Source: Synechococcus sp. Cruz-7E5
GTDB taxonomy: Bacteria > Cyanobacteriota > Cyanobacteriia > PCC-6307 > Cyanobiaceae
Length of the DNA stretch: 64,000 nt
NCBI RefSeq assembly: GCF_024345995.1
Contig: NZ_JAGQCE010000012.1
Location: 1 to 64,000, forward strand
Direction of reading: 5' to 3'
Positions within the stretch are counted from its first letter, which is position 1. Every line of letters starts with the position of its first letter. Below, in pieces: positions 22,634 through 64,000 of this stretch. The notes beneath the pieces were generated by a model. That model worked only from the letters and a program-made list of their open reading frames with translations. It searched no databases and was not told where the DNA came from. A program made the translations under genes and the position numbers.

Positions 22634-22699
22634 ATCTCTGCGCTGAAAGGGCAGGCTCACGTTGACCAGCAGATGGTCATCGCGAGCCTGCCCAGCCGA

Positions 22700-24016
22700 T
22701 TAGCCCAGATCAGTGACAGGGTCGTCTGTGGTGTCCGGCATGCCTGGCGGGCTGACAGGTCGATAGCGATTCTCTTGCCCCTTAGCAATAGCTACCCTCT
22801 CAAGGATCACCAAGCCACATCTCGACATGGTGTCGAGGTATCGACGAATCACCCTCGTGGGGTCCTGACCGGAGATCTCGGAGCGTTCCAAAATCTCGGC
22901 CACGGAAACCATCTGTTGGGTTTCCTCGAAACGGTCGCGCAGAACCTGAAGCACGTCCCGCTGTTGCCTGTTGAGCCGCTGTTCTGCCTGGACCAGGAGT
23001 TGCGCTTCCGAGGCCTCAGCGCTTTCCCCGCAATGAATCCAGCCTCCATCTGGACCACGGGCGACCAGCAGCTCCAACGGAGCGCCGGCCCTGCCTTCCG
23101 TCCTCAGCATGATCTGGCCCGCCTCAGCAGAGGCAGGGCGTGACTGCAGGCGGTTGAGACTGATAATCTGGGAGGCTGCCGCTGGTAGAGCCGTGTTGCC
23201 TCGGCTACCCATGCTGGCGGAATCAGCTGAGCGGCCCTTGTTGGCGTGGTGAATCACCACAACGGTTGCGCCGTAGGGCCCGACCGCCTCCATCAGCTCA
23301 ATGACCGGATCGGCCAGTTCAGCAGTATTTTCGTTGATCCCGAGAGGGCGGCAACAGGCATGGAGTGTGTCAACGATGATCAACAGTCCTGGGTTGTCGG
23401 CCGCCTTCTGGGCAATCTTCTGGATGCCTTCCTCATCCAGATACCAGGGACATCCGGAATGGGCCAGCCCAACAATGGGCGGGTCGCAGAGCCGAGCGTC
23501 CCCAGCCTCATCGAGGTAGACAAGGCCGACACCTTGCAGGATGCGGGCCCAGTCGCGTTCGGGCTGGTCGGTACCGATGATCAACACCGGTGGGCAGGTG
23601 CCAATCAACGGCAACCCCAGGAAGGTGCTCTCCCCTCGATGCAAGGCGCCCAGCAGAGCCAAGATCAGAGTGGTTTTTCCAACCTTAGGAAGGGAAAACA
23701 GCAGATTGATGCACCCGGCCATCAGGAGGTGCTCGCAGATCCACTCAGGCTGCGACAGGTCCAGAACATCGTCAGCCGTCACCAATTCAGGAGTTCCTGC
23801 AGCTTGGCTGCAGGCCTCTTTGAGGTATCGACCCAGCTCAGGATTACTCAGTTGGATGCCGATTTTCTTCGCCTGTTCACGCAGCAGTGGAACCCTGTCC
23901 AGGACAGGGACGCCCGAATCGATCAGTCGGATCGCCTCTATCCTTACCTCCTGGATCTTGTCTTCTGGAGACTGCTCCATCGAGGAGGCAGCGCTGATAT
24001 TGGTCGTGTTCTTCAT
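22700..24016 (-). CDS. RecA-fold/RepA-like ATPase
   Basis: This 438-residue P-loop ATPase resembles the AAA_25/RepA group of hexameric helicase-type proteins. A Walker A SLPKVGKTTL lies at about residues 125-134. VLIIGTDQPERDWARIL carries the family's D-x-P-E segment, and Walker B is LLIIVDTLHACC (about residue 213). A sensor-like VVVIHHANKGRSADS follows. The C-terminal ~100 residues form a winged-helix-like region (QRDVLQVLRDRFEE...). Its ATG (ending 24016) overlaps the stop of the upstream HTH gene in an ATGA arrangement, which fixes the start; a longer frame to 24076 is rejected. The role is likely element replication or partition. Confidence 0.8.
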   Translation of the reverse strand: MKNTTNISAASSMEQSPEDKIQEVRIEAIRLIDSGVPVLDRVPLLREQAKKIGIQLSNPELGRYLKEACSQAAGTPELVTADDVLDLSQPEWICEHLLMAGCINLLFSLPKVGKTTLILALLGALHRGESTFLGLPLIGTCPPVLIIGTDQPERDWARILQGVGLVYLDEAGDARLCDPPIVGLAHSGCPWYLDEEGIQKIAQKAADNPGLLIIVDTLHACCRPLGINENTAELADPVIELMEAVGPYGATVVVIHHANKGRSADSASMGSRGNTALPAAASQIISLNRLQSRPASAEAGQIMLRTEGRAGAPLELLVARGPDGGWIHCGESAEASEAQLLVQAEQRLNRQQRDVLQVLRDRFEETQQMVSVAEILERSEISGQDPTRVIRRYLDTMSRCGLVILERVAIAKGQENRYRPVSPPGMPDTTDDPVTDLG

Positions 24017-48128: not shown

Positions 48129-48429
48129 CGTCTCCCTCCTGCTGTTGGCGGGTGAACTGCCCACGGCTGTTCCGTACCGGCGGCAGCGGCAAGCGGCCAG
48201 GTGCAGGGCTGCCTGGGGCAGGACTACCAGCACGGCTGTCCATGAAGTAAGTCGCCGCCGACTGGCCGGCCAGGGCGATGGCGGGCAAGGCCAGTGCCCA
48301 ACGGTGCTCGCACAGCTGAACGTCAGAGGTCCGAACCTCGCAGACGGCAACGAAGGCACCCAAGGCCAGGATCTCGGCACCGACCAGGGCAAGGATCGGC
48401 GCGGTGTTGCTGGCAGGAGCAGGAGCCAT
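48112..48429 (-). CDS. Two-helix membrane protein
   Basis: The 105-residue protein has two hydrophobic segments (about 11-30, ILALVGAEILALGAFVAVC, and 44-60) and a polar Pro-rich C-terminus. It could be a holin or antiholin, given the YkuD gene near by, but the strands differ. Confidence 0.5.
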   Translation of the reverse strand: MAPAPASNTAPILALVGAEILALGAFVAVCEVRTSDVQLCEHRWALALPAIALAGQSAATYFMDSRAGSPAPGSPAPGRLPLPPVRNSRGQFTRQQQEGDDALVE

Positions 48430-48589
48430 CAGCGGGGCGGCAGGAAGGGCAGGCGATGCACCTGCTCTCTCTTGCCAGGAACGAACGGCGTCGGCCCGAT
48501 CGGTGGCGGCTGGCCTGCTGCTTGGCCTTGCTCAGCTTGGCCTCTTCCTGCGTCGAGGCCTGGGGTCGCGCGTCCTACGCGATCAGGCC

Positions 48590-49144
48590 ATGGCCCGCAC
48601 CCCATCCCAGGCCGATGCCCTCTTCCAGCAATTCATGCCCCTCGCTGATTCCATTGCCCGCAGCCTGGCGGCCGGCAGCCGCGTGGTCGAGCTGGAGGAT
48701 GCCCGGCAGGTGGCGCAGATGCAGCTCTGGCTCTCCTGCCGCCAAGTAAGCGATACAGCCTCTGCCCCCGGCTATCTCAGGCGCTGCATCAAGGGCGCCC
48801 TGCTCCATCACCTCCGCGATTACGGCCGCCTGGTCCGCGTCCCGCGGCGTCAGCACGAGAAGGGCGGCCACCCCTGGAGCCACCAGAGCCTGCATGCCCC
48901 CCTGCCTAGCGGCGCCACCTGGATCGATCAGCTGGAGGCGCCCGAGCAGGAGCAGCTGCCGGAAAGCGCCGGCGTGGAAGCCCTGCTGGATCGGCTCCCG
49001 GCTGGCCAGGCGGCGATCATCCGGCTCTCGGTGCTGGAGGGTCATTCCCTCCGCCAGATCGGGCAGCAGCTAGGCATGAGCCCCATGTCGGTGCAGCGGC
49101 ATCGGCAGAGGGGCCTGGCCGCCCTCAAGGCTGAGCTGGCCTGA
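48590..49144 (+). CDS. Small sigma-70-type factor, copy 2
   Basis: This 184-residue paralogue of the 21610 factor has region 2 (LFQQFMPLADSIARSL, YLRRCIKGALLHHLRD about residues 62-78, then RVPRRQHE). A region 4 HTH reads LEGHSLRQIGQQLGMSPMSVQRH. It lacks an N-terminal extension. The open frame extends 62 codons further upstream to 48404, but the ATG at 48590 matches the other copy. It is likely to drive element-specific genes, perhaps via the palindromic/iteron sites near by. Confidence 0.82.
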   Translation: MARTPSQADALFQQFMPLADSIARSLAAGSRVVELEDARQVAQMQLWLSCRQVSDTASAPGYLRRCIKGALLHHLRDYGRLVRVPRRQHEKGGHPWSHQSLHAPLPSGATWIDQLEAPEQEQLPESAGVEALLDRLPAGQAAIIRLSVLEGHSLRQIGQQLGMSPMSVQRHRQRGLAALKAELA

Positions 49145-50342: not shown

Positions 50343-50412
50343 GCCCCACGGGCAAGGGCTGACGCAAGCGGCTCGGCGACAGGCGCCGTCGCCGCCCTTG
50401 CCGTCGCGGGGC
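50343..50412. promoter_or_regulatory. Palindromic element D (nested)
   Basis: Three nested symmetries: outer GCCCC...GGGGC, middle GGCAAGGGC...GCCCTTGCC, inner CGGCGAC...GTCGCCG. The CAAGGGCTGACGCAAG phrase is identical in element B. The ArdC ATG (50443) follows 31 nt after the right edge. Confidence 0.6.
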
Positions 50413-50442
50413 ACCACTCGGGCGTCCCGCGCCTTGCCTTTC

Positions 50443-51387
50443 ATGGCCGCGTCCAAGTCCCGCTCTCGCAAAACCTTCGCTGGCCCCACGGCCGAGGAGA
50501 AGATCGTCGCCTCCTTGATCGAGCTGCTGGAGGCCGGCTCCGCCCCCTGGCGGCGGCCCTGGGATAGCAGCGGTGGCGGCCACCACGTCAATCTGATCTC
50601 AGGCCATCGCTACCGCGGCGCCAATCCGATCCTGCTCACCCTCGGCATGCACATCCGGGGATCCGCCACCCCGTTCTGGTGCGGCTTTGCCGAGGCCAGG
50701 AAGCTCGGCATCTTCCCCCGCAAGGGCAGCAAGGCGGTTCACATCCTGCGGCCCCAGCTCCACAGCCGAGAGGAGCCCGGAGAAGGCGGTGAAGTCACCC
50801 TGCGCAGCTGGGCCAGATACCGGCCGGTGGCGGTCTTCAATGCCGCCGATCTCGAGGGCGAAGCCCTCGCCGGCCTGATTGAAGGGCGCAAAGCAGCAGA
50901 AGGCGTTGAGGCCAAGCCAGAGCCCCAGCGCCTGGAGGCGGCCGAGGCCATGCTGGGTGCCTGGCCGGTGCCGGTCAGCTTTGGGGGGGATCGCGCTTGT
51001 TATCTGCCGGGCATCGATCGGATCCAGCTTCCAGATCGCGCCAGCTTCCATTCGCCTGCAGCGTTCTGCGCCACCTGGGCCCATGAGCAGATCCACTCCA
51101 CCGGCCATGAGTCCCGCCTGAAGCGTGATCTGGGCGGTGCCTACGGGAAGGCGCGCTATGCCCGTGAGGAGCTGGTCGCCGAGTTGGGGGCGGTGCTGCT
51201 GGGTGATCGGCTGGAGATCGGCAGCGAGATCGAGAGCCATGCCGCCTATCTGGGCCACTGGATCGAGCTGCTCAAGGAAACGCCCAAGGTGCTGTTCCAG
51301 GTGCTCAGCGAGGCGCGGCAGGCGGCAGATCTGATCTGTCCAGAGGGGCCATCATCTCGGGATTCAGGGTATTGCTCTATTGCTTGA
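50443..51387 (+). CDS. ArdC-type anti-restriction protein, copy 2
   Basis: This 314-residue protein has the N-terminal ssDNA-binding domain (EEKIVASLIELLEAGSAPW, then SGHRYRGANPILL) and C-terminal zincin domain (HEQIHSTGH, HExxH, about residues 215-223; AREELVAELGAVLLGD). It is closely similar to copy 1 at 18450 but lacks that copy's inserted repeats. Palindrome D is 31 nt before its ATG. It converges with the DISARM operon: an anti-restriction gene next to a restriction-like system is noteworthy. Confidence 0.88.
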   Translation: MAASKSRSRKTFAGPTAEEKIVASLIELLEAGSAPWRRPWDSSGGGHHVNLISGHRYRGANPILLTLGMHIRGSATPFWCGFAEARKLGIFPRKGSKAVHILRPQLHSREEPGEGGEVTLRSWARYRPVAVFNAADLEGEALAGLIEGRKAAEGVEAKPEPQRLEAAEAMLGAWPVPVSFGGDRACYLPGIDRIQLPDRASFHSPAAFCATWAHEQIHSTGHESRLKRDLGGAYGKARYAREELVAELGAVLLGDRLEIGSEIESHAAYLGHWIELLKETPKVLFQVLSEARQAADLICPEGPSSRDSGYCSIA

Positions 51388-51452: not shown

Positions 51453-52250
51453 TCAGGCGGCAATTTCAAGAGGCAAGAAAAGGCCTTGGTCAACGGCCAT
51501 GGAGAATTGCTTCTGAATCTCCTGCACCCTTGGGGCGGATTTTGTCAGCCATCCAGCCTCAAAGTTATGACGCTGCGCCGTTTCACTGAAGTTGGCGCTG
51601 GTCACAAGGGCTTTGGCATCAGGTGTTGTTGCATCAGCAATGACAATTTTGGCGTGCTGGTAACAACGCTCAGCCGATCCTGAGATCAGCCGTCGGTCCA
51701 CATAGGCATGGGGTTTGGCTGGCCAAGGCCAGACTTCCCGGTTGAACCATGTTGAGATCGTCGCCAGGGGGTCAGCACCAAGGCGATCCTCAATCTGCTT
51801 GGGGTGGAAGAACAGGTCGACACGGTTCAGCTGACCATGGGCCAAGCGATCGGCAATGGAGGCGAACAACGCGCGAAACTCGCTGCTGAGGCCGATGTTG
51901 TAGGTGGCGATCAGCAAGCTGCAGCGGGCTTCGCTGATGAGTTGAGCCACCGTGGCAAACGTGTCGGCCGTTTTGGCATGGAGCGGATCCGGGCCCGACC
52001 AGACAAAGCTCCAGGCGTTTCGTTCCCTCTGGAGAGCGTCCTGGGTATCGGCGAGGCGATCCAGCAACAACGCCATGAGGCGGGGATGGGCCCCCTCTCG
52101 CACCATCTCCACCAGCAGTGGCTCGAGCTGAAGGCGGATGGCTTCGCTGTGAGTGGAGAGCAAGCCCTGCCAACTGGTGGGCGTGTAGTTCAGACGGCGG
52201 AGATCGGTAGCAACTGCCCGCAGTGTCTGAGCTGGCAGCGTGAGGCTCAT
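51453..52250 (-). CDS. drmC: DISARM component DrmC (phospholipase-D domain)
   Basis: This 265-residue protein has one HKD motif, HAKIVIAD (about residues 205-212, H-x-K-x4-D), and later SANFSE, as in PLD-superfamily DISARM components. The helical first half has no motif. DrmC is non-essential in DISARM. It starts with an ATGA overlap on the drmB stop, and is the last gene of the operon. Confidence 0.88.
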   Translation of the reverse strand: MSLTLPAQTLRAVATDLRRLNYTPTSWQGLLSTHSEAIRLQLEPLLVEMVREGAHPRLMALLLDRLADTQDALQRERNAWSFVWSGPDPLHAKTADTFATVAQLISEARCSLLIATYNIGLSSEFRALFASIADRLAHGQLNRVDLFFHPKQIEDRLGADPLATISTWFNREVWPWPAKPHAYVDRRLISGSAERCYQHAKIVIADATTPDAKALVTSANFSETAQRHNFEAGWLTKSAPRVQEIQKQFSMAVDQGLFLPLEIAA

Positions 52251-54145
52251 GCGTTGATGAACTCCCAGAAGGATGGATCACCGATTTCGGGGTTGGCCGA
52301 AACTGTGGGGCTCACCAGTGCTCGATCGAGGAACTCATTGCGGATCTCGCAGGAGGTTTCGGCGATCAATTCACAGCCATGGCAAGCGGCGCCATGGGTG
52401 GGGCGGATGTCGAAGGGGTGGTTGGGGTCGTGCTCGGAGCAGAAGGGATCATTGCTGCAGAGCTGACCGCGCTCGAACGCCTTCTCCAAGTAGGCCACGA
52501 TCCTCTTGCCGGCTCCCACCAGGCCGCCAAGGGTGCCCTCTGACCCGGAGCTGCTGGTGAACAGCAAGATGCCGTAGCCGATCTCGCTGTTGGCGTAGAT
52601 GCGCTCGCGGATCGAGCTGGCGCCGTAGCCACACTCCAGAGCCATCTCAGTGATCAGCAGGTGGCTGAGGCTGTGGAGCAGAAGGTAAGGGGCTCCAGGG
52701 AAGGGGAACTGGGCTTCGTCGAGACCACGTGACGCGAGCCATTCGTTCTCGAAGGCCTTGGTGAACTGTCCGGCCCGCATCGCCACCGGATCACTGGCGG
52801 CCCAGGCGCGGATCGTGGCGGGATCGAATTCGATGAAGATCCCTTCCCCCTTGTTTTCACTGGCAGGCACCCAGCGAAGATCGTTGGCCAGCGGTGCCCG
52901 GCGGTTCACCTTGGTGGTGTCGATCGGAAGGCCGCCCAGGCTGCTGGTACGGGCCGTGAAGCGGGTGAACCCCACCAGAGCCTGCACCTCCCTCAGGCGG
53001 TGCAAGAGCAACACCCGCTTGATGGCTTTGCTGAACCAGCCTGGAGGGCAGGGTGGCTGCCAAACATCCGCCTCGAACAGGCTCCCCTCTGCTGAGCTGG
53101 AGACCCCATCCATCGGACCGATCAGCAGGGCCAGCTCCTCATCCTTGGGTTGGGCGACCTGCCCGGTGCTGCCGCCCCGCTGGGCCTCAATCACCTGCCA
53201 CAGGACGGACGGTTCCACTCCGGCGAAGGCGCTCTTCAGCCTGGGGTTGAACTTGAGGGCTGCGGATACATCCTCTTCCGCCTCAATCAAGGCAAGGTCG
53301 TCTTTGAGTTCGGTGACGCGCTTGGCCAGGGAGTTCGCTTCCTCCGGCAGGGAGATCACCGAGATCGTCTCAGTGAAGTAAGCGTTGGTGGCCGAACGCA
53401 CTAGCAGGCGATTCTTTGTGGGCTCACCATCGGTCTTGCACTTTTCGGGGTCACGGGTGTTGCGGCCCAGCCAGGGCGTGTGCCCCTGGCAGAGCCCCAG
53501 AGGGCTCATTTCCGTGACCAGGGCATCGGCGAGCTTGCGGGTCGTGCCGCCTTCCGACTGCACATAGATCTGGGTGAAGTCGTTGCCGGTGCCGGCCTCA
53601 AGCAGATACAGGCGCTCGGTGTTTTTGCAACCGAACTGGCGAAAGCAGAAGTCGCGCCAGCGGATGTCGCTGAGGTGGCCGTGTGGGCAAGCCATCACGA
53701 AGCGAACGGGTACCAGCGAGTGCTTGCCTTCGTCGTCTTGATAGGTGCGCCAGTCGGAGATGCAGCCGTCGTTGAAGTGCACCAGGGGCCTGGCCCGGCA
53801 GGGAATCCCAAAGGCCATCCGCTCGCTGACCTTCTGGGCCACCGACCACTCCGGAAAGCGCAGCGCCTTGATCGAACCACTGATGTTCTTAAGTGGATCC
53901 ACCTCCTTGGGCGGCGTGCGTAGGTCGACCCGGGCCACCCCCGTGGCCTGCCGCACCAACTGCAGCAGCCGCGGCTCATGGATCAGATCGCAGCCACGGT
54001 CGTTCCAGAAATCCAACCCCCCGATCAACAGGGAGTAGTCGGGCAGATCGACCATCGCCCCGGGCCCGTAGAGCTGGAGCACCTGGCTCTGACGCGCCTC
54101 GCCGAGTGGCGGGGGAGCAGCTTTGCGGCGGGTGGAGGTGGGCAT
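52247..54145 (-). CDS. drmB: DISARM component DrmB (DUF1998)
   Basis: The 632-residue DUF1998 protein has a conserved N-terminal RQSQVLQLYGPGAMVDLPDY and a DUF1998-like region (LLHSLSHLLITEMALECGYG, about 495-515). A C-terminal cysteine cluster (CSNDPFCSEHDP and HGAACHGCELI) probably binds zinc. DrmB forms a complex with the DrmA helicase that is loaded on foreign DNA. It lies 20 nt after drmA and overlaps drmC by 4 nt. Confidence 0.93.
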   Translation of the reverse strand: MPTSTRRKAAPPPLGEARQSQVLQLYGPGAMVDLPDYSLLIGGLDFWNDRGCDLIHEPRLLQLVRQATGVARVDLRTPPKEVDPLKNISGSIKALRFPEWSVAQKVSERMAFGIPCRARPLVHFNDGCISDWRTYQDDEGKHSLVPVRFVMACPHGHLSDIRWRDFCFRQFGCKNTERLYLLEAGTGNDFTQIYVQSEGGTTRKLADALVTEMSPLGLCQGHTPWLGRNTRDPEKCKTDGEPTKNRLLVRSATNAYFTETISVISLPEEANSLAKRVTELKDDLALIEAEEDVSAALKFNPRLKSAFAGVEPSVLWQVIEAQRGGSTGQVAQPKDEELALLIGPMDGVSSSAEGSLFEADVWQPPCPPGWFSKAIKRVLLLHRLREVQALVGFTRFTARTSSLGGLPIDTTKVNRRAPLANDLRWVPASENKGEGIFIEFDPATIRAWAASDPVAMRAGQFTKAFENEWLASRGLDEAQFPFPGAPYLLLHSLSHLLITEMALECGYGASSIRERIYANSEIGYGILLFTSSSGSEGTLGGLVGAGKRIVAYLEKAFERGQLCSNDPFCSEHDPNHPFDIRPTHGAACHGCELIAETSCEIRNEFLDRALVSPTVSANPEIGDPSFWEFINA

Positions 54146-54165
54146 GGAGGTGTTGACTTTCGGGT

Positions 54166-57100
54166 TCAGTCTTCGGTGGTGATTTCTTCCTTGAAGTTCA
54201 CCATCCGGATCGGGGCGGAGGGCTCCACATCGCGCAGGCTCCAGTTGGTGGTGAACTGCTTGTAGCCCTCGGCTTGGTAGATCGGGTCGGTATCGAGTGC
54301 GGTGTGAAGGAAGCCAGCCCCGGCCCCCTTTTCCTCATGGGTCCAGTACTGCAGCTTGGCCTCCGGCTCCTGGGTGAGCTTCCACCAAGCTTCGAGCAGA
54401 TCGATCACGTGATCACGCACGTCGGTGGGGAGGTGTTCGTCGAGGCTGTCGTCAGCTGCACCTGTGGCAATGCAACGCTCCTGCAGCGCCGTGGCGATCT
54501 GGGCCTTGATGCGTTGCAGGGCATCCGCTGCCATGGCGCCCTTAGCCCCAGCCAGGGCTGGATCGCCATGGCGGGCCATCGCCACCACCACCCCCGGCAG
54601 GCCCCTGTCGAGAGCCCGGCTGGCGAAGGGCGTGCAGCTGGTGGCCTCCACATGGCGATAGAAGGTCTGGTGCCAGTAGGGGAACAGCTCGAAATGGGAG
54701 CGATCCCGCGGGCGGTTGGGGTTGAGCAGGACGAGCACCAGCCCTGGCTTGTTCTGCTGCGGGTTGTCGCTCAGCTGCCGGCCGACGCGGCTGGTTGCCT
54801 GGATGTACTCGGCGGCGGTCTTGGGCTGGTTGAGCACCACCATCAACCCGAGGCGGGAGATGTCGAGACCCACCGAAATCATGTTGGTGGCCAGGGCCAC
54901 GTCGAGGTGGTCCTTGTCTACGTAGGGCTTGGAAAGACGGTCTTTGGTGCTGCTGATCTTGGCCGTGTTCACGCGGGATGTGAGCTCCTCTGGTTCGTTG
55001 GGCCGTTTGCGGCTGGCGAAGGGGTTCTCGAAACCCTCCATGGCGAGGGCGCGGTTTCTGGCGAACTGGTCCAACTGGGCGCCGAGTTCGTCTTCCAGGA
55101 TGCTGCGGGTTACGCCCAGCTCCTTGAGGTTGGAGAAGTAGCCCAGCAGGGTCATGTAGGGATCTGCCGGGTTGTTGGCGCCCATGGACTTGTTGTCGTT
55201 CCAGGCCTTCTGGGCTGCAGCCATCAGGCCCAGGTAGGAGCGCAGCAGCACGCCCTTGAGGTTGCGGCCCGGGGCTGAGAGGCCCACGTAGAGTCGAGCC
55301 TGATCGGGATCGGGGATGGTGCGGGAGAAGAAATTGTCATCTCGCTCCGGGCCCGGCGGCGGAAAGATCCGCACCTGGCTGCGGGCGAACAGGGCCTTGA
55401 TCTGAGCTTCGGCCCGGCGCACGGTGGCGGTGGAGGCAATGATCTTGGGGGGCAGTGAAGAGGCTTCCGGCCGCATCAGCCCCTCGATCACCGTTTCATA
55501 GAGGCCAGCGAGGGTGCCGAGGGGGCCACTGATCAGGTGTAGTTCGTCCTGGATGACGAGTTCCGGCGGCAGCAGACGGCCGTGGGGAATCTTCAAGCCA
55601 CCCGTGCCCTTTTCCGCCGGCCCCCAGAAGCCCGCAGGTGCACTCCCCGTGGGCAACTGATATGTGCTGACGTTGCCGAACAGCGAGGAGGTTTTGCCGA
55701 CCCAGGGAAGGGCGGCGAACTTGTCGATCGTGGCGATCAGGAAGCACGGCAAGCGGCGGTAGATCTGCTCGTCCACCGCCAGCACTGGCAATGGTGTGCC
55801 CTTGTGGAAGGGGCATGGCCCCATATGGGCGAAGTCTTGCTTGGCCTCAGGAGAGCGGGGTTCGCGGCAGTAGATCTCCAGTCGATCGGGATTCCTCGGG
55901 GGCAACAGGTGAAAGCCTTCCGGCTGAAGGGGGCGATTGCACCAGGGGCAGGTTTCGATCGGGATCGGCCGATCGCGCTTGCCGGCCTTCCACTTGGTGA
56001 GCACGGCGTGGGTGGACTGTTGGTCGCTGTCGCCCGGTCCGCCGAGCTTGTTGGGGGTGGCGGCCTTGCCGACCCACATGCCGATCTCGAAGGGCCATTC
56101 ACCCAGCAGGTAGGGGTCGCTCTTCTCGATTCGCTCCAGGCGCTCCAGCTCCAGGGCGCAGATCAAGGTGGCGGCGCGGCCGAGCTGATCCAGGGTGAGC
56201 AGCCGCAGGGTGTAGCGCATCAGCACCGTGATGCCGGCGGATTCGATCCCAGGGTTCTGCAGGCGACGGTGCACCAGGAGGAAGGCCGCCAGGCCCAGGT
56301 AGGCCTCCGTCTTGCCGCCACCGGTGGGGAAGAACAACAGCTCCACGGCCTCACGATCCAGCCGGCCTTCGGGGGTCTCGGGAGCCGCCAGGCCCGGCAG
56401 ATTCATCAGCACAAAGGCCAGCTGGAAGAAGCGCCACTTCGGGGCGCGGGTATTCGGAACGATGCCGATCTGATCGGGCGGCACCTTGGCGCTGAAGGCA
56501 CTGCGCTGCCGGCTGGCGCGGGCCATCACCAGGTTCATGGTGCGGAAGGCCTCGCGCACCAGGGGATCGGCGAGCAGCTTGATGCCGTTTTCGATGCGCG
56601 TGGCGCAGGCTTCCGCCTGGGCCCGGAGCTGCTTGGCGGTTTCGTTCTGATCGTTGTCGCTGATGGGGTGTGTTGGTTGCTGGGTGATCCAGCCCCGGTA
56701 GGCCGTCACCATCGGCATCAACTGCTGGCCGATGCGTTCGCTGCGGGCCAGATCTGCCAAGGCCTCCATGCCCATTGGCACGTTGGTGCCGGGAGGTGGT
56801 TCGGGAAGGGTTCGGAACACACGGGCCGTAGGTAGCCAGGTGGTGGTGAGCGTGTGGCAGCGGGCCGGGTTGTCGTTAGGGATGTCTGAGGCGATCACGG
56901 CCACGTTGTGGCCGCCCGCAAAGCAGTAGTCGCGCCGGTATTGGAGAGCCGCCAAGCGTTCGTCAGGATCCTTGGCCGCCTGCTGCAGGGCATCGCGACG
57001 CGGTGGGAAGCCCTGGGGGCACTGGAGGCTCAGCTCCACCTGGAAGGCAGAAACCGGATCGCGGTGACGGATCTGGTTGGTCTTGGGCGGCTCCCGCTTG

Positions 57101-57705
57101 TTGAGCAGAAAGAGCGACACCGACAGCTGATCACTGCGATAGCCGAGCTTGCTGGGTGCTGGCCTGGCGATCCAGCGCAGGCAGAGACCCTGAGGGTTGG
57201 TCTCCAATGGGATGTCTGTGCTGGTGCCCTCGCCGGCAATCGTGAGCGTCACGCTGTGGCGCTGAGGGGTGCGCAGCCAGAGCTTCTCGTCGTCGCCATC
57301 GGCCGGGGCTGTGTAATCCCCCCAGGAGACAGTGGCCTCGATGGTGGAGCCACGCTCCAGGATGAAGCTCAGGCCGCAGGACGAGGTAAACCAGCTGCGT
57401 CGGGTGTTGGCCTGATCAAGGGCATCATTGGCGTCATCGTCCTTTTCCTGCTTCTCCAGGCGATGGGTAGCGTCGCTGCTGGGTTCTTCGCCAGCGAGAT
57501 CAGAAAAGGAGAGTTGCTCGTCTGTTGTGGCGCGGCCCGCTTCCTGCTGGAACACATGGGGCACCAGGAAGCCGGTGGTGAACCAGACCGAGGGCGGCTG
57601 GGGCAGTTGTTCATGGCGACGGGCAACATCGTCCCAGCGTGGTCCAATCAGATCACTGTGCAGGGCCGCGACGAGCTGGGAGCGGATTTCGGCGGAGGTG
57701 GCCAT
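54166..57705 (-). CDS. drmA: DISARM helicase DrmA
   Basis: The 1179-residue SF2 helicase has Walker A FFPTGGGKTEAYLG at about residues 458-471. A DEAH-box-like motif II follows: LVIQDELHLISGPLG (D-E-L-H). The C-terminal RecA domain has ATNMISVGLDISRLG and IQATSRVGRQ (motifs V and VI). The N-terminal ~400 residues are a DISARM-specific region. It is separated from the upstream DUF262 gene by 1 nt. Confidence 0.94.
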   Translation of the reverse strand: MATSAEIRSQLVAALHSDLIGPRWDDVARRHEQLPQPPSVWFTTGFLVPHVFQQEAGRATTDEQLSFSDLAGEEPSSDATHRLEKQEKDDDANDALDQANTRRSWFTSSCGLSFILERGSTIEATVSWGDYTAPADGDDEKLWLRTPQRHSVTLTIAGEGTSTDIPLETNPQGLCLRWIARPAPSKLGYRSDQLSVSLFLLNKREPPKTNQIRHRDPVSAFQVELSLQCPQGFPPRRDALQQAAKDPDERLAALQYRRDYCFAGGHNVAVIASDIPNDNPARCHTLTTTWLPTARVFRTLPEPPPGTNVPMGMEALADLARSERIGQQLMPMVTAYRGWITQQPTHPISDNDQNETAKQLRAQAEACATRIENGIKLLADPLVREAFRTMNLVMARASRQRSAFSAKVPPDQIGIVPNTRAPKWRFFQLAFVLMNLPGLAAPETPEGRLDREAVELLFFPTGGGKTEAYLGLAAFLLVHRRLQNPGIESAGITVLMRYTLRLLTLDQLGRAATLICALELERLERIEKSDPYLLGEWPFEIGMWVGKAATPNKLGGPGDSDQQSTHAVLTKWKAGKRDRPIPIETCPWCNRPLQPEGFHLLPPRNPDRLEIYCREPRSPEAKQDFAHMGPCPFHKGTPLPVLAVDEQIYRRLPCFLIATIDKFAALPWVGKTSSLFGNVSTYQLPTGSAPAGFWGPAEKGTGGLKIPHGRLLPPELVIQDELHLISGPLGTLAGLYETVIEGLMRPEASSLPPKIIASTATVRRAEAQIKALFARSQVRIFPPPGPERDDNFFSRTIPDPDQARLYVGLSAPGRNLKGVLLRSYLGLMAAAQKAWNDNKSMGANNPADPYMTLLGYFSNLKELGVTRSILEDELGAQLDQFARNRALAMEGFENPFASRKRPNEPEELTSRVNTAKISSTKDRLSKPYVDKDHLDVALATNMISVGLDISRLGLMVVLNQPKTAAEYIQATSRVGRQLSDNPQQNKPGLVLVLLNPNRPRDRSHFELFPYWHQTFYRHVEATSCTPFASRALDRGLPGVVVAMARHGDPALAGAKGAMAADALQRIKAQIATALQERCIATGAADDSLDEHLPTDVRDHVIDLLEAWWKLTQEPEAKLQYWTHEEKGAGAGFLHTALDTDPIYQAEGYKQFTTNWSLRDVEPSAPIRMVNFKEEITTED

Positions 57706-57706
57706 C

Positions 57707-59575
57707 TCAGCTCACGCCTCCAGTATTTTCTGCCAGTATCCGATCCAAGCTCCAGATTCGGCCAGCAAGCTCGGCATAGAGCTTGTTACGGCGTTCCAAC
57801 ACCTCCGGGGTGTACTCCCGTTCGGATTGGAAAGCTAAGCCACTGCGTTCGAGGAAAGCCTTGAACGCGGGGTTGTTCAGGTAGGCCTGCTCGCAGAAGG
57901 TCTGGGCAAGGGCGTTCTGAGTTACGTACTGGCTGCGCTTCTCCTCATAGGGGCGGTCGCCATAACTGGCGTTAATGGATTTGGGGATCAGCAGCAAAGC
58001 CCCAATACGGTTGCGGGCTTCCCGGAAGTTCTCTTCCTGGGGATACCAAGTACGTATGCCGGGACGATCTTCTGACCAGCTCTGCTCTGCCCAGATGTGC
58101 TCCACCTCATAGGCCTGTTTACCGCTGGCTGTGACGTAGTCGACGTAGCGGCCGAGTTGGCCCGATTCGCGCTCAAGGTGATGGGTGAGGCGGGCGAGGA
58201 AGCGCTTCACCTGGGGGCGGTTCATGCGACCACGGGTAAGGCCCCAGGGGGCCGAGGCATCAAAGCCTGGAAGGGGAGCCAGGTCATCGATCAGAGCCCG
58301 TTGCAATTCCGGGAGTGAACGCCGGCGCAACTTGTCCCGCAGCAGGGTGAACACCCGGTAGTAGTTGGTGGAGTAATCAATCGCCCAGTAGCTCCAGATC
58401 CGGCGGTGGATCGAAATGTCCACGTAGTTCGCCACCAGGCGGAGCTTGGCCTCCACCAGCCCCGGTGGATCGTCGAGGCTGAGGGCACTCAGCATCAGAG
58501 GCAACTGCAGGGTAAAGCCGTTGCTGTGGTTGAAGTAGATGGCCTCCAGCCCTGGCACGAGCTGTTCACTGGCCAGTCGGATTTTCCGGTAGATGCCGGT
58601 GAAGAAGGCGTACTCGCGCTGGATGAAGGCCACAAAGCCGGCTTCGTTGCCCAGGCCCAGCAGTTCGGTATGGTCTTTTACCCAGCGGTGGAATTCGCTG
58701 GCGATCAATTCAAAATCCTGACTGGCAGCCTGGGCCCGGCGCTCACGGATGCTGACGGCATGCTGGGCCCGAAGCCACGCCTTGATGCAGTCGGCCTGGG
58801 CCTCCTTGTCAATCCCCACCAGCTGCTGCTCCAGCTGCTTCCAGACATCGCTGCAATGGTTGCGCTGACTTTCGGTGGGGATGTTAGCCAGCAGGAATCC
58901 TTTGAGCATCTCGGCCGGGGTAAGGCGCAGCCCCCGATCATTCATGGTTTCAAAGATGGTGTAGGCCGCCTCATCGCTGTAGGCGGTGATCTCCACTAGC
59001 TGCACATTGTCGATCAACCAATCTACGAAATATGGCAGTGAATGGCTGAGAAGATCGGCAGGAAAGAGGGCCTCTATGTCGGCATAGCGGGCCAGCATGG
59101 TGCGCACTGCATCACTGGCCGCGCTGGTTTCAAATGGCTCGTTGTTGAGCAGGGCATGGAGCAGGGCTTCGCGCTCCTCTACATCGATGGTGAAAGCTTT
59201 GGTGCCGTACTTCTCCGCATAGATGAGGGGGCGGATGTTGGCCTGATCTTCGCCAATGGGTAGGGAGCGTAGAAGAAAGATCAGCAGGAGCGTCAGGGTG
59301 GTGAGGCGCTGTTGCCCGTCGATCAGGAATCTGCGTCCTTCCTTCTCGCTGGTGATCACTGCACCGAGGAAGTAATGCCTGTAGTCGCGCACCTTGGCGC
59401 GAGAGTGAGAAGGGTCGTGGTCTTCGAGAAACTGGCTGGTGAGATCGTCAATCAACTCCTCCACCTGCCGGCGTTCCCAGCGGTATTCCCGCTGGTAGTA
59501 GTCAATCCCGAAGCGAGCGCCGAAGAGCAGTTCACGGATGCTGGAGACCTTGCCGTCAAGCTTTTTCATGACCAC
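57707..59575 (-). CDS. DUF262/DUF1524 protein inside the DISARM operon
   Basis: The 622-residue protein has an N-terminal DUF262 (GmrS-like) domain with IDYYQREYRWERRQVEELID (about residues 24-43) and the DGQQRLTTLTLLLIF motif (about 83-97). A C-terminal DUF1524 (GmrD-like) domain carries an HNH-like pattern (YEVEHIWAEQS near 487, NRIGALLLIPKSINASYG near 525). Related proteins cleave modified DNA (GmrSD) or nick DNA (SspE). It overlaps drmMI by 10 nt and is 1 nt from drmA, so it is translated as part of the operon. It is not one of the canonical DISARM genes. Confidence 0.9.
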   Translation of the reverse strand: MVMKKLDGKVSSIRELLFGARFGIDYYQREYRWERRQVEELIDDLTSQFLEDHDPSHSRAKVRDYRHYFLGAVITSEKEGRRFLIDGQQRLTTLTLLLIFLLRSLPIGEDQANIRPLIYAEKYGTKAFTIDVEEREALLHALLNNEPFETSAASDAVRTMLARYADIEALFPADLLSHSLPYFVDWLIDNVQLVEITAYSDEAAYTIFETMNDRGLRLTPAEMLKGFLLANIPTESQRNHCSDVWKQLEQQLVGIDKEAQADCIKAWLRAQHAVSIRERRAQAASQDFELIASEFHRWVKDHTELLGLGNEAGFVAFIQREYAFFTGIYRKIRLASEQLVPGLEAIYFNHSNGFTLQLPLMLSALSLDDPPGLVEAKLRLVANYVDISIHRRIWSYWAIDYSTNYYRVFTLLRDKLRRRSLPELQRALIDDLAPLPGFDASAPWGLTRGRMNRPQVKRFLARLTHHLERESGQLGRYVDYVTASGKQAYEVEHIWAEQSWSEDRPGIRTWYPQEENFREARNRIGALLLIPKSINASYGDRPYEEKRSQYVTQNALAQTFCEQAYLNNPAFKAFLERSGLAFQSEREYTPEVLERRNKLYAELAGRIWSLDRILAENTGGVS

Positions 59576-62500
59576 AGCCCGATCTGGACGGGTTCACTAA
59601 TGAGTTGGAATGAGCCAGAAGCGACTGGGACGGCATTTGGTGGCGCTTTGGACTTTGTCTTGGCAGTCTTCTTGCCCCCTTTGCTGTGCAACCCCATCGC
59701 CACCTCCTCGGCGTAGCGCTCGGCGTTGAGGGCGAGCAGGCGGGCGAGGACGTCGTCACGCACGGCTTCTGGCCACCGGTAGCGCCAAGGCAGATTGCTT
59801 CGGCCGCTGATGGCACCACAGGCCTGCAGGTGCCGCTGGAAGTCAAGGGCATCGCATGCGTCCCTGAAGAACAACTCGCCGCTGTCGATGCGCTCCTGCA
59901 GCTGATAGGGGAGCTGGTTGTCGTCTTCGAGATCGAGGTAGTCAAGCCCGAAGCCGTAGGCGGTAGTTACATCGCTCCAACCGTAGGCGGCCAAAACCAT
60001 CTGATCCATCACGCTATGGAGGCGGCGTAGGCTCAAATGTTTGGGGCTTGTTTCGGCGGGATCGTGGAAGCGATTGTATGTATTTGTCAAGCCTTCGCTG
60101 AAGACGGTCGTGCAACTTTGGCGTAGCACATCGTATTGACGACCAATCCTGTCTAAATCTTCAAGCTTGCAGTCTGAATTCTCTGGATTACTTCCGCCAT
60201 TTACTGCTGCTTCAGGAAACGGGAAAGCCTCATAGCAATCGACAGTTGAGTAAACGGGCCTGTCTTCCAGTGTTGAGCCCGTGAGCGCGCACCAAAATGA
60301 GTGGCACGACGAAGATAAAATAGCGAAAGTCGAGTAGATGTTGTCACTGCAAACTACGACAACTTTGTGACTAAATACATACTCTGCCGGAAGAATGCCA
60401 AAGCAGCTGTATTTAGATGTCTGCGATATTGCGCATACCTTTTCCACGCTATTCTTGGCATGATTAAGCGCCGGGGTTTGAGTGCCAAAAAGCCACCACT
60501 TCTCTCTCCTGCTGTCTGCGACGGAGTATCCACCAAGCTTTGATCTACCAGGCTTCACTCTTTGTTCAACCAAGCGAAAAACCGTTGGATAAGCCTTTGC
60601 CTGCTCAAGGCTCAAGCCCGTGAAATCAATAACTTTTCTGTGCGGAAGCATCTGAGGGTGGGTGGTTATTTCTTTGCCTCCAATGAAATCATGGATAACC
60701 TCCTTCTCTGCAGGAGACTCTAAAAGAATTTGCTCGATTTCGCCCAAGGACCCTTCAGGCGATGGTGAATCGAGTTCAAAAACAAACCCAGCTCCATAGA
60801 CATCTGCGCCTCTGAAGCACTTATCTTTGTTGGAGCCGAGCGGTTCTGGATCTTGATCGACTTCTGTAGGCAGCAAAAATGAATTTATGCCGGATACCAC
60901 TTGCTCGTCTAGGCGGCAAATTGATCTTGCTCCACCCTTGGCAAGGCAAATGGCACATGCAACCACGGCAGCATCTCCTCTCCAAGGTATTCTTCGGATT
61001 GCCGAGTAGATTCTTCCGCCGCCATGCAGAATCTGTTTTAGGCCCGCTTGCCTGGTATCTCCCTGAAAAACTGTATTTGTAGAAACAAAGCCAATCGACC
61101 CCTCCTCCAGCAGCAGAGTGAATGATCTTCGGAAGAAATGTGCAATTAAATCTACTGCTTTCCCAGTAGAGTTGGGATGAGTAGCCCTTAGCCAATCGGG
61201 ATAAGAGTCGCCTAGTACAGGCCATATCTTTGCACCTCCGAGGTAAGGAGGGTTGCCCACGAAAATATCAAAGCCCGGCTCTTCTCGCCCGAACACATCC
61301 GGGAATGCCAGCTGCCAGTGCAGCGGCTGAATGCCCTTCTCGCCACAGCGCAACCGCTCTAGCGGCTCGGCTAGCTCGTTCTCCAGCTCTGCCGCTGAGC
61401 TGTGCTGCAGCGTGGCCGCCAGAAAGAGCTGCTTCAGCTCTTCGCGATCCTTCGGCTTCCTGCCGTTGAAGAACGCCGCCACCAGCAGATCACCCACTGT
61501 GCGTAGGTAGGCGGTGCTGGCGTTCAGGGCCTCCAGGGCCTGGCGCTTCTGGGCGTCGTCAGCATCGTTACGGCTGTCGGCATGGAACAGCGCGAAGCTC
61601 CTGGCCTCCTGCTGCCGCACCTGATCGAGCAAGGTGATCTGCAGTTCGCGCTGCATGCTGGCGCCCTTCAGTGCCGTTTCGATCTCGCTGCGCTCCATGC
61701 CCACCAGCGAATCGCCGCACTTGAGGGCGTGGTCTACAAACGTGAAGGGTGCATCTTTGCTCAGGCTCACCAGCCAGAGGCTGAGGCGGGCCAGGTTCAC
61801 AGCAAATGGGTTCTTGTCCACGCCATAGAGACAGCTCTGGGCGATCAGCCGGCGGGCATAGATCAGCGGCTCTTCCCCATGGGCGGAGCCACCGGGCTGG
61901 AGGGCGTCGGGCAGCCTTTCCCGGGCCCAGGCCAGCTCCAGCAGTTCGGCCAGGAAGCGGCAGCACTCCACCAGGAAGGCACCGGAGCCCATGGCTGGAT
62001 CGCAGATCTTCAACGCCAGGATCTGGGCCACGGTGGGTTTGCCGCCGCAGCGTTCCAGCCAGGGCCGCAGCGCCTCCTCCACGATCGGCCGCGTCAGCGA
62101 TCGGGGCGTGTAATGGCTGCCGCTGCGGCGCCGTTCCTCGGTGGGCTGGAACACCAGGCTGCCCGCAGCCTGGGGCCCATCGAACAGCTCGCGGTTGATC
62201 CGCGGGGCAAGGGCCTCCAGCAGCTCGGCTTCGCTGGCGGCGGCCTTCAGCGCATTGGCAGATTTGGGCGGCAGGGTGGTGGCCGCTTCTTCTTCCAACC
62301 ACGCCTTGCGCTTCTCGCCAGGCAGTGTCAGCAAGGCATCGAGATCCACCGCCGTGGTGAGCTGTTTCTTGGCCCCCTGGGGCTTGCTCTTAAGGCCGAT
62401 GCAGCGGCCGGGGATGCGACGCACCGCATAGCCCATGATCCCCTCGTACACCGAGCCGATCTGCTCCACATCCAGCGCCCGGTAACTGATGCGCTCACCC

Positions 62501-63729
62501 TTCACCACCAGCAGGTTGGAAAGCACCTCGTGCACCACCCCATCGCTGATCCAGGGGGTTTCCAGCCAGGGGTAGACCGCCGGATCAAACAGCTGCCCTT
62601 TGCGGGCCGGCAGGTAATCCACGGTGGCGCCGCCGCCATCGAACACCAGCCGGCACAGGCTCATCAGGCCGGCCCAGGCGCCGTAGCGCTGTTCCAAAGT
62701 GTCGGGAAACTCGGCGGCGTCCTGCTCCAGCCGCTCGAAGACACCGCTCACTTTGTAGTTCTGCTCATACACCGCATCCTTTGGCAACAAGGCGTTGTCT
62801 TCTGCGTAGAGGAGAAACACCAGCCGCATCAGCACCGTGATCAGGCCGCCATAGAGCTGCTTTGGATCGTCCTCGGCCAGATTCCCCAGCAGCAGGCCGC
62901 CCTGGCGCTGGGTGAGTTCATCGGCCTGTTGGAAGCCGCGCAGCAACTCCCACAGCGCCGCGAGCACCTGATCCGCCAGGGCATTGCTCACCACCGCTTG
63001 GAAGCTGCGGCTCTTCCTCAGCACATCAGCGAGCCGGTAGCCGTCTGGATCGAGGAACACATGGCTCTGGCCCAGCAGCAGATCCAGGCCCGAGAACATC
63101 AGCCGGCCGCTCACCTCGGCGAGATCCTTGAGCGAGAAGGTGATGTGCCCAGAGCTTTCGCCCTTCGGGGCCACCACCAGCCGCAGCTGGCTGCCGTTGA
63201 ACAGCAGCCCCGCCTCCACGCCTGTTTCGCGCAGCAGCCGCTCAAAGCGCTCCTGGGCGCTGGCCCGCCAGAGGTGCTCGCCTCCGGTGACCTTCTGATC
63301 CAGTGGCGTGAGCAACGGCAATTCCTGGACGAGCAGCTGCGTGCCATCGCCGATCGCAGCAGGCACCACGGCTGAAGGTTGCAAGGTTTCGCCGAGTTCA
63401 GGCAGTTCCCTGGTGAAGCCCTCGATCAGGTTCGGGCTGCTCTGGACCTGGTCGCCACTCCAGCCCAGGTGATCCACCAACAAGGTCTCGATGCTGGAGA
63501 AACCCAGCTCCCGATCTTCCGCATCAGCATCTTCATCAGGACCAAGGGCTTCAAGCGATTCCCGGTATCGCTCCTGCCGCTCGATCAGCTCGCTGCCACT
63601 GCGGGTTACCACCCAGCCGGCGTCCTGCATCGCCGCAGGCGCCACCACCAGGCCCACCGGCTGCAGGTAGCCCAGCCACTCCTGGTGGGCCAGGAGCTCT
63701 GGATCGCGTTGGACACCTCGTTTGGCCAT
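59566..63729 (-). CDS. drmMI: DISARM adenine methyltransferase DrmMI
   Basis: The 1387-residue N6-adenine methyltransferase has an S-adenosylmethionine motif I KICDPAMGSGAFLVECCRF (about residues 575-593) and the catalytic motif IV DIFVGNPPYLGG (about 820-831). The N-terminal ~500 residues form a long helical/specificity domain, and the C-terminal ~400 residues a target-recognition-like region. It modifies host DNA so that DISARM ignores it. The start is 2 nt after the drmD stop (63732). Confidence 0.93.
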   Translation of the reverse strand: MAKRGVQRDPELLAHQEWLGYLQPVGLVVAPAAMQDAGWVVTRSGSELIERQERYRESLEALGPDEDADAEDRELGFSSIETLLVDHLGWSGDQVQSSPNLIEGFTRELPELGETLQPSAVVPAAIGDGTQLLVQELPLLTPLDQKVTGGEHLWRASAQERFERLLRETGVEAGLLFNGSQLRLVVAPKGESSGHITFSLKDLAEVSGRLMFSGLDLLLGQSHVFLDPDGYRLADVLRKSRSFQAVVSNALADQVLAALWELLRGFQQADELTQRQGGLLLGNLAEDDPKQLYGGLITVLMRLVFLLYAEDNALLPKDAVYEQNYKVSGVFERLEQDAAEFPDTLEQRYGAWAGLMSLCRLVFDGGGATVDYLPARKGQLFDPAVYPWLETPWISDGVVHEVLSNLLVVKGERISYRALDVEQIGSVYEGIMGYAVRRIPGRCIGLKSKPQGAKKQLTTAVDLDALLTLPGEKRKAWLEEEAATTLPPKSANALKAAASEAELLEALAPRINRELFDGPQAAGSLVFQPTEERRRSGSHYTPRSLTRPIVEEALRPWLERCGGKPTVAQILALKICDPAMGSGAFLVECCRFLAELLELAWARERLPDALQPGGSAHGEEPLIYARRLIAQSCLYGVDKNPFAVNLARLSLWLVSLSKDAPFTFVDHALKCGDSLVGMERSEIETALKGASMQRELQITLLDQVRQQEARSFALFHADSRNDADDAQKRQALEALNASTAYLRTVGDLLVAAFFNGRKPKDREELKQLFLAATLQHSSAAELENELAEPLERLRCGEKGIQPLHWQLAFPDVFGREEPGFDIFVGNPPYLGGAKIWPVLGDSYPDWLRATHPNSTGKAVDLIAHFFRRSFTLLLEEGSIGFVSTNTVFQGDTRQAGLKQILHGGGRIYSAIRRIPWRGDAAVVACAICLAKGGARSICRLDEQVVSGINSFLLPTEVDQDPEPLGSNKDKCFRGADVYGAGFVFELDSPSPEGSLGEIEQILLESPAEKEVIHDFIGGKEITTHPQMLPHRKVIDFTGLSLEQAKAYPTVFRLVEQRVKPGRSKLGGYSVADSRREKWWLFGTQTPALNHAKNSVEKVCAISQTSKYSCFGILPAEYVFSHKVVVVCSDNIYSTFAILSSSCHSFWCALTGSTLEDRPVYSTVDCYEAFPFPEAAVNGGSNPENSDCKLEDLDRIGRQYDVLRQSCTTVFSEGLTNTYNRFHDPAETSPKHLSLRRLHSVMDQMVLAAYGWSDVTTAYGFGLDYLDLEDDNQLPYQLQERIDSGELFFRDACDALDFQRHLQACGAISGRSNLPWRYRWPEAVRDDVLARLLALNAERYAEEVAMGLHSKGGKKTAKTKSKAPPNAVPVASGSFQLISEPVQIGLWS

Positions 63730-63731
63730 TG

Positions 63732-64000
63732 TTATCCGCTGATGGGCCAGAGGTACACGAGCCCCGCCGGCTCCAGCCGGTGGGTGATCACCCTGTAGCT
63801 CTCCTGAATCCGTTTCGGTTCGGTGGCCAGCTCTGTTTCGATCCTCTCCAGGCGCCGTTGCCAGTGCTTCTGATCAGCCGCGAGTTGTTTCCGCTCCTGG
63901 CTGGAGAGCTTCTGCAGATCCAGGGCAGGAACTTCCAGCTGCTCTTCCAGGCCTGGGATCAGTGCGGTGGGATCGGCTGCCGCGGCCTGGCGATCGAGCT
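63732..64000 (-). CDS. drmD: DISARM component DrmD, C-terminal end only
   Basis: The frame is open from the window edge to a TAA, coding for 88 residues. It has a helical charged segment (SSQERKQLAADQKHWQRRLE) then RVITHRLEPAGLVYLWPISG, the typical end of the SNF2-like DrmD helicase. The stop lies 2 nt before the drmMI start. The rest of the gene is outside the window; the assignment rests on this end and on the class 1 operon order. Confidence 0.8.
   Translation of the reverse strand, partial: LDRQAAAADPTALIPGLEEQLEVPALDLQKLSSQERKQLAADQKHWQRRLERIETELATEPKRIQESYRVITHRLEPAGLVYLWPISG

What the first reader, a model, noticed from the sequence alone, without database searches (positions are those of the whole stretch)
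51453..64000. Class 1 DISARM operon with an inserted DUF262/DUF1524 nuclease-like gene
The order drmD-drmMI-[DUF262/DUF1524]-drmA-drmB-drmC has an extra gene in the middle. The gene overlaps drmMI by 10 nt and sits 1 nt from drmA, so it is translationally embedded, not a passing insertion. Canonical DISARM has no nuclease of this kind. GmrSD- and SspE-like proteins attack modified or unmodified DNA. An inference is that this variant adds a DNA-cleaving effector to the DISARM translocase.
Basis: partly seen in the sequence, partly recalled or inferred. Interest (0 to 1): 0.78.

Follow-up and report, generated by a model that had tools for sequence, protein, structure and literature searches.

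The report
Nuclease gene lodged inside DISARM operon
A cyanobacterium carries an intact, selectively maintained DNA-cutting-enzyme gene of a known anti-phage family (GmrSD/BrxU/SspE-like) inside its DISARM defence operon, and relatives show that this exact spot is a recurrent docking site for swappable defence genes.

Summary
A complete class 1 DISARM operon (drmD-drmMI-drmA-drmB-drmC) has an intact DUF262+DUF1524 gene between drmMI and drmA. It starts at ATG 59569, a 4-nt ATGA overlap with drmMI (not 10 nt), and ends 1 nt before drmA. Catalytic motifs are kept; dN/dS is about 0.08 against its only close relative, which lies in the same slot of another DISARM operon.

It is not a one-off. In the Cyanobiaceae sample, 13 of 44 drmA-bearing genomes carry a DUF262 gene in this slot, from at least three lineages only 20-27% identical, all in operon orientation; close copies of the two main lineages were found nowhere else in the family sample. 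The slot is a general cargo port: 29 of 31 resolvable operons hold something there (MntA/HepT pairs, AbiE, SieB-like, Fic, ATPases), next to DrmMI's hypervariable target-recognition region.

A 'nuclease effector added to the DISARM translocase' is possible but not shown. Precedents (BrxU in BREX; TgvAB in type I R-M; HEC-05/06 in Hma) favour an independent modification-dependent restriction enzyme, co-expressed to catch phages that escape DISARM. Embedding of such genes is known; the DISARM junction as a recurrent port is the new part.

The parts
63732..64000 (-). drmD, C-terminal end (gene continues beyond the window to contig position 67109)
   Evidence: full ORF L005:733-4110; NF038317 1039 bits
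59566..63729 (-). drmMI, adenine-type DNA methyltransferase of class 1 DISARM (1387 aa)
   Evidence: Eco57I/MmeI domains, PADLOC DrmMI E=0
60130..61329 (-). hypervariable target-recognition region of DrmMI (approx. residues 801-1200): about 20-65% identity to relatives, mostly 25-40% in residues 901-1200, where the N-terminal part is mostly 65-97%
   Evidence: identity profiles; MmeI_TRD Pfam match residues 998-1173
57707..59569 (-). embedded GmrSD-family gene (DUF262+DUF1524), 620 aa, start ATG 59569, ATGA overlap with drmMI stop
58892..59521 (-). GmrSD_N (DUF262) domain
59306..59320 (-). DGQQR motif (D84-R88), nucleotide-binding/NTPase motif, invariant in all homologues aligned
57770..58135 (-). 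GmrSD_C (DUF1524) His-Me finger nuclease domain
58091..58102 (-). EHIW, candidate catalytic His491; E490-H491 invariant in both homologue alignments
58010..58012 (-). N520, candidate His-Me finger Asn, invariant in the 8-protein alignment (the other motif Asn, N533, is at 57971-57973 and invariant in both alignments)
57717..57721 (-). GGAGG, possible ribosome-binding site of drmA lying inside the 3' end of the embedded gene
   Evidence: sequence; inference
54166..57705 (-). drmA, YprA-type helicase (1179 aa)
52247..54145 (-). drmB (DUF1998/MZB)
51453..52250 (-). drmC, PLD-type nuclease

Best explanation
The gene is a one-protein GmrSD-family, BrxU/SspE/DndI-fold NTP-dependent nuclease that has docked in a recurrent cargo site of class 1 DISARM operons, between drmMI and drmA, and is read as part of the operon. 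Inferred mechanism: its DUF262 domain binds and hydrolyses NTP on meeting DNA with a particular modification state and switches on the C-terminal His-Me finger nuclease, cutting incoming phage DNA. It works independently of DrmAB but is made together with it, so DISARM handles DNA lacking the host methyl mark while the embedded enzyme handles phages whose modified DNA (or anti-DISARM measures) let them through. Shown here: gene, motifs, fold, selection, operon position, recurrence, cargo turnover. Inferred: co-transcription, NTPase and nuclease activity, the DNA mark sensed, independence from DrmAB.
For: Both GmrSD Pfam domains over cut-off; DGQQR, E490-H491 and N533 invariant in the 8- and 11-protein alignments, N520 invariant in the 8-protein one; AlphaFold model (mean pLDDT 82.5) matches DndI 9jfl E=5.5e-13, SspE 1.9e-12 and BrxU 3.7e-7; dN/dS 0.08. 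Position: ATGA overlap and 1-nt gap. Independence: homologues occur without a DISARM neighbour, as a lone gene (Pantoea, Rhodococcus, G157) or in other modification operons, i.e. type I R-M (G017; Deinococcus radiophilus) and an SNF2/helicase/methyltransferase operon (Aeromonas media). The enzyme is 86% identical between two operons whose DrmMI recognition regions are only about 30% identical. Precedents: BrxU complements BREX and is active alone (PMC8565348); TgvAB embedded in type I R-M acts on T-even phages without HsdR activity, and its DGQQR and His mutants are dead (PMC11411939); HEC-06 is reported as antiviral (PMC12988326).
Against: In the family sample close copies of the two main DUF262 lineages occur only inside DISARM (11 of 11 genomes), which is more than a freely independent gene needs. 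The closest folds, DndI and SspE, are readers of a self mark rather than classical type IV enzymes. No activity has been measured, and whether cyanophages infecting this host carry modified DNA is unknown.
Confidence: 0.55

Rival explanations
1. Dedicated DISARM effector: the protein is recruited or licensed by activated DrmAB and supplies the DNA cleavage that DISARM otherwise lacks or gets from DrmC or host nucleases.
For: 11 of 11 family genomes with close copies of the two main lineages have the gene in the DISARM slot; all in operon orientation; at least three unrelated GmrSD lineages recruited to the same junction. DrmC is dispensable, and DISARM's nuclease step is an acknowledged gap with a 'mix-and-match' proposal (PMC9142583).
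Against: About 70% of DISARM genomes in the same family lack it; DrmA 96% identical to the window's coexists with other cargo; Mnt/HepT, AbiE, Fic etc. use the same slot; homologues occur in non-DISARM contexts; DrmC is intact here.
Confidence: 0.17
2. Self-mark reader: like SspE/DndI with phosphorothioate, the DUF262 domain senses the methyl mark laid by DrmMI (m6A), which triggers NTP hydrolysis and release from self DNA, so that unmarked phage DNA is nicked.
For: Best fold matches are DndI and SspE; often beside a DNA methyltransferase gene (DISARM, type I R-M, Hma-like); a tyrosine at the position of DndI's sensing Y25 is present (Y25; alignment; PMC11662687).
Against: 86%-identical proteins sit with DrmMI proteins of different recognition regions, so no one sequence mark can be read; homologues also occur with no adjacent methyltransferase; lineages b and c lack the tyrosine; no dndC homologue and no dndD over cut-off in the host genome; the BrxU authors infer that BrxU does not recognise N6mA (PMC8565348).
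Confidence: 0.13
3. Neutral or selfish lodger: the drmMI-drmA junction is merely a recombination hotspot in a defence island; whatever lands there is kept because disrupting it would break drmA expression, with no benefit from co-expression.
For: The slot holds very varied cargo including toxin-antitoxin pairs and antisense genes; cargo presence shows no clustering on the DrmA tree (9 changes vs 8.6 shuffled); some DUF262 copies are decaying (G424 TAG, G432 fragment).
Against: dN/dS 0.08 on the window gene; DUF262 genes enriched about 250-fold over random placement (11 seen, 0.04 expected; not corrected for defence-island clustering) and always in operon orientation; nearly all cargo with a recognised domain is a known defence or toxin-antitoxin kind.
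Confidence: 0.15

Closest known systems
BrxU (GmrSD-family type IV enzyme with BREX; PMC8565348)
   Same: single protein with DUF262 + DUF1524, lodged with a methyltransferase-based defence system
   Different: host system is DISARM, not BREX; fold match to BrxU weaker than to DndI/SspE; target modification unknown
TgvAB (GmrSD-like pair embedded in the V. cholerae VPI-2 type I R-M operon; PMC11411939)
   Same: GmrSD-type genes embedded between genes of a modification-dependent operon, same motifs
   Different: TgvAB needs two proteins; here one protein; DISARM instead of type I R-M
HEC-05/HEC-06 (PADLOC 'Hma-embedded candidates', Payne et al. 2024 preprint, not held here)
   Same: best PADLOC hits: window HEC-06 1.7e-36; the L049 copy HEC-05 8e-222; lineage b HEC-05 2.9e-45; a lineage-b relative lies between methyltransferase and helicase of an Hma-like operon in a planctomycete plasmid
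   Different: embedded in DISARM; the window protein is a divergent relative of HEC-06 (124 bits, best stretch in the N-terminal half), not a close member
SspE and DndI (phosphorothioate-sensing DUF262 nickases; PMC9646914, PMC11662687)
   Same: closest solved folds, NTPase-gated nuclease design
   Different: no dndC and no dndD over cut-off in the host genome; not beside ssp or dnd genes
Class 1 DISARM (DrmABCD-MI)
   Same: all five components present over curated cut-offs or by PADLOC
   Different: an extra gene in the operon; cargo at this junction is frequent in cyanobacteria
ShdA/RmuC genes embedded in DISARM-like operons of Pseudomonas (PMC10270631)
   Same: precedent for an extra defence gene within DISARM
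   Different: unrelated protein family, other taxon

Membership tests
Class 1 DISARM | drmA, drmB, drmC, drmD and drmMI together, no drmE | tested here: met
   operon intact, drmD completed from the contig; every gene between drmD and drmC is accounted for and none is drmE
GmrSD family | DUF262 domain with QR, DGQQR and FxxxN motifs | tested here: met
   PF03235 113 bits (cut-off 33.2); Q26-R27, DGQQR 84-88, F206..N210 invariant
GmrSD family | DUF1524 His-Me finger (H...N...N) nuclease domain | tested here: met
   PF07510 39.8 bits (cut-off 23); E490-H491 and N533 invariant in both alignments, N520 in the first
GmrSD family | cleaves modified-cytosine DNA in an NTP-dependent way | not testable with these tools
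   biochemistry needed
HEC-06 (PADLOC) | full-length match to the HEC-06 profile | tested here: inconclusive
   E=1.7e-36, best stretch residues 5-258 of 622; no PADLOC threshold available
SspE/DndI | partner phosphorothioation genes in the genome | tested here: inconclusive
   dnd partner genes not met: no DndC match, DndD only below cut-off; sspBCD not searched
TgvAB | two DUF262 proteins in tandem | tested here: not met
   a single DUF262 gene in the operon
Embedded defence gene ('guilt by embedding') | intact gene between the genes of another defence system, recurrent in independent genomes | tested here: met

The most novel reading that the evidence does not exclude
The drmMI-drmA junction of class 1 DISARM is a dedicated exchange port: recombination swaps the DrmMI recognition region together with a plug-in effector, and GmrSD-type nucleases from at least three unrelated lineages have been recruited there as the DNA-cutting arm of DISARM, filling the missing nuclease step of the system.
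Probability: 0.15. Interest if true: 0.82.

Novelty: new variant of a known kind. Interest (0 to 1): 0.56.

Why it matters
How DISARM finishes off phage DNA is an open question (DrmC is dispensable). A recurrently recruited nuclease at one fixed junction gives a direct test of whether DISARM uses plug-in effectors or just co-expresses complementary restriction enzymes. The cargo port is also a practical way to find new defence genes in cyanobacteria: several proteins in it match no Pfam family.

Tried and rejected
Chance or passing insertion: rejected (intact, dN/dS 0.08, recurrent). The 10-nt overlap: rejected in favour of the ATGA 4-nt overlap. Phosphorothioate reader proper: dndC not found and dndD below cut-off. 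Cargo inherited vertically with DISARM: not supported (9 label changes on the DrmA tree, 8.6 expected by shuffling). DUF262 in DISARM slots outside Cyanobiaceae: looked for in the resolvable slots of other cyanobacteria and in plasmid-borne class 1 operons, none found, though other cargo is common there and absent in the two actinobacterial examples. Viral contigs: no close DUF262 or drmA relative with single-sequence patterns; distant DUF262 relatives were found and used only for the alignment. Some homologue stretches (L143, L152, L153) had stops in frame and were left out. The Payne 2024 preprint and Ofir 2018 are not in the library, so I cannot exclude that DISARM-embedded DUF262 genes are already listed there; the papers that hold both terms were searched only in part, and the passages seen describe none.

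Full report
Observation. The window ends in a complete class 1 DISARM operon on the minus strand. Four of the five components pass NCBI's curated cut-offs (DrmA 1115/950 bits, DrmB 521/240, DrmC 162/133, DrmD 1039/610) and DrmMI matches the PADLOC profile with E=0. drmD is cut by the window edge but complete on the contig. Between drmMI and drmA lies one extra gene with GmrSD_N (DUF262) and GmrSD_C (DUF1524) domains, both over Pfam cut-offs. Its start is best placed at ATG 59569, which overlaps the drmMI stop as ATGA; the homologues start at about the same residue. The stop is 1 nt before the drmA ATG, and a GGAGG lies inside the gene's last codons.

Is the gene functional? Q26-R27, DGQQR (84-88), F206/NDRG (210-213), E490-H491, N533 and K544 are invariant in the 8-protein and 11-protein alignments, and N520 is invariant in the 8-protein one. 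Against its only close relative (86% identity) dN/dS is 0.08, lower than drmA 0.20, drmB 0.18, drmC 0.21 and drmMI 0.26 of the same two operons. Synonymous divergence is high for this gene (dS 1.17), so the value is approximate. An AlphaFold model (mean pLDDT 82.5) finds DndI, SspE and BrxU as its only significant PDB matches.

Recurrence. That close relative lies in the same slot of the DISARM operon of another cyanobacterium (VGPU01000039.1 = G536), there flanked by MNT/HEPN toxin-antitoxin genes and other ORFs. A search of 390 family genomes finds this lineage (a) in these two genomes only. A drmA search of 400 family genomes found 44 carriers. Reading their neighbourhoods and searching PF03235 in 39 of them showed further DUF262 genes in the same slot: lineage b in G424, G486, G507, G518, G525, G549, G572, G579 and G637; lineage c in G532; a fragment in G432. 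Lineages a, b and c are 20-27% identical to each other, and each ends in its own His-Me-type motif (EHIW, HHIFP, DHVFP), so GmrSD-type enzymes were recruited at least three times. Close copies of lineage b (at least 69% identity) were found in nine family genomes, all in DISARM slots. Of about 46 DUF262 places in the 39 genomes, 11 were counted in slots that add up to 0.09% of the sequence (0.04 expected); G572 makes it 12. These slot copies have drmA's orientation or, where drmA is on another contig, drmMI's. The enrichment does not control for defence-island clustering, and lineage b was defined from slot copies, so the counts describe rather than prove a dedicated partnership. Some copies are damaged (TAG in G424, fragment in G432).

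The slot is general. In 31 operons with both sides visible, the drmMI-drmA interval runs from 17 nt to 10.1 kb (median 3.1 kb) and only two are essentially empty. In the near clade the cargo commonly ends within a few bases of the drmA start codon and begins after a conserved DrmMI C-terminus. Contents with recognised domains are nearly all defence or toxin-antitoxin kinds: MntA/HepT-like pairs, AbiEi/AbiEii, SieB-like, Fic, AAA_21 and ATPase_2 proteins, a DUF4011/MTES_1575 helicase-nuclease, a PDC-S06 ATPase, an NB-ARC-like TPR protein. Fic, ATPase_2 and AAA_21 genes in this slot are antisense; DUF262 and Mnt/HepT genes are sense. Other taxa show the same port: an ATPase + DUF4435 pair with a weak AriB (PARIS) match in Trichormus, MqsA + SecB in Thiodictyon, XRE + small-protein pairs in alphaproteobacteria, while Paracoccus, Sulfitobacter, Sphingomonas, Calothrix, Rhodococcus and Nocardia examples have no cargo. 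No DUF262 was found in slots outside Cyanobiaceae.

Turnover. The window's DrmA is 96% identical to that of G495, which has other cargo; the orthologous DUF262 sits with a DrmA of about 80% identity. Presence of DUF262 is not clustered on the DrmA tree (9 changes, 8.6 in shuffles). DrmMI's recognition region (about residues 801-1200) falls to 20-65% identity (mostly 25-40% in residues 901-1200) where the N-terminal part is mostly 65-97%, so specificity and neighbouring cargo both vary. That they are exchanged in the same recombination event is a conjecture.

Mechanism. Relatives of the window gene lie in a type I R-M operon between hsdR and hsdM (G017, by sequence inspection), after hsdS with a 4-nt overlap (Deinococcus radiophilus plasmid), beside an SNF2/helicase/methyltransferase set (Aeromonas media) or alone; a lineage-b relative lies between methyltransferase and helicase of an Hma-like operon (Planctomycetes K2D plasmid). 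This fits a self-sufficient enzyme that is often expressed with methylation-based systems. BrxU complements BREX by cutting modified DNA and works alone (PMC8565348); TgvAB inside type I R-M works without HsdR activity and dies when DGQQR or the nuclease His is mutated (PMC11411939); HEC-06 is reported antiviral (PMC12988326). I therefore favour a complementary, modification-dependent restriction enzyme (0.55) over a DrmAB-recruited effector (0.17), a neutral lodger (0.15) or an SspE/DndI-like self-mark reader (0.13). The effector idea deserves a test because DISARM's nuclease step is unresolved (PMC9142583). The self-mark reader is weakened by near-identical enzymes paired with different DrmMI recognition regions and by the lack of dndC, with dndD only below cut-off.

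Novelty. Embedding of GmrSD-like genes in other defence operons is known (BREX, type I R-M, Hma), and ShdA/RmuC in DISARM-like operons is known (PMC10270631). A DUF262/DUF1524 gene in DISARM, and the drmMI-drmA junction as a cargo port, were not described in the passages I could search; the key preprint on embedding was not available. I rate it a new variant of a known kind.

Noticed in passing
window 50398-51387 (+): ArdC-type anti-restriction protein (ArdcN + zincin domains) convergent with drmC, suggesting that DISARM borders a mobile element.
   Followed up: partly
L039 6590-7735, L040 7274-8419, L041 5968-7113, L044 4935-6080 (loci turned so that drmA reads forward): A second, smaller cargo slot between drmD and drmMI, holding a 381-aa Fic-family protein in the same orientation; members of the same family sit antisense in the main slot of L045, L046 and L076.
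   Followed up: partly
L080 8889-10872: ATPase + DUF4435 pair (weak AriB match, PARIS-like) embedded between drmMI and drmA of DISARM on Trichormus variabilis plasmid C.
   Followed up: partly
L064 11872-12441 (drmA-forward): A 189-aa protein with a CVICG / HNH-like start directly behind the interrupted lineage-b DUF262 gene; no Pfam match.
   Followed up: no
L046 9664-11885: Two overlapping cargo genes (379 and 361 aa) in a DISARM slot with no Pfam match; candidates for unknown defence proteins.
   Followed up: no
L073 5791-13234: DISARM slot with an HSP70-NERD protein followed by a 1729-aa helicase carrying RNA polymerase alpha C-terminal domain matches.
   Followed up: no
L079 9538-10980: 480-aa slot protein of a Nostoc plasmid DISARM with no Pfam or PADLOC match; a separate DUF262 gene lies downstream of drmC at 20860-23178.
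   Followed up: no
G000:C2:91375-92052: A second, different DUF262 gene in the window's own genome.
   Followed up: no
L005 8251-10452 and 6377-7066: RecD2-type helicase and a staphylococcal-nuclease-like gene upstream of drmD.
   Followed up: no
window 48404-49144 (+): Sigma-70-like factor (regions 2 and 4) near the DISARM end of the window; could belong to the adjacent mobile region.
   Followed up: no
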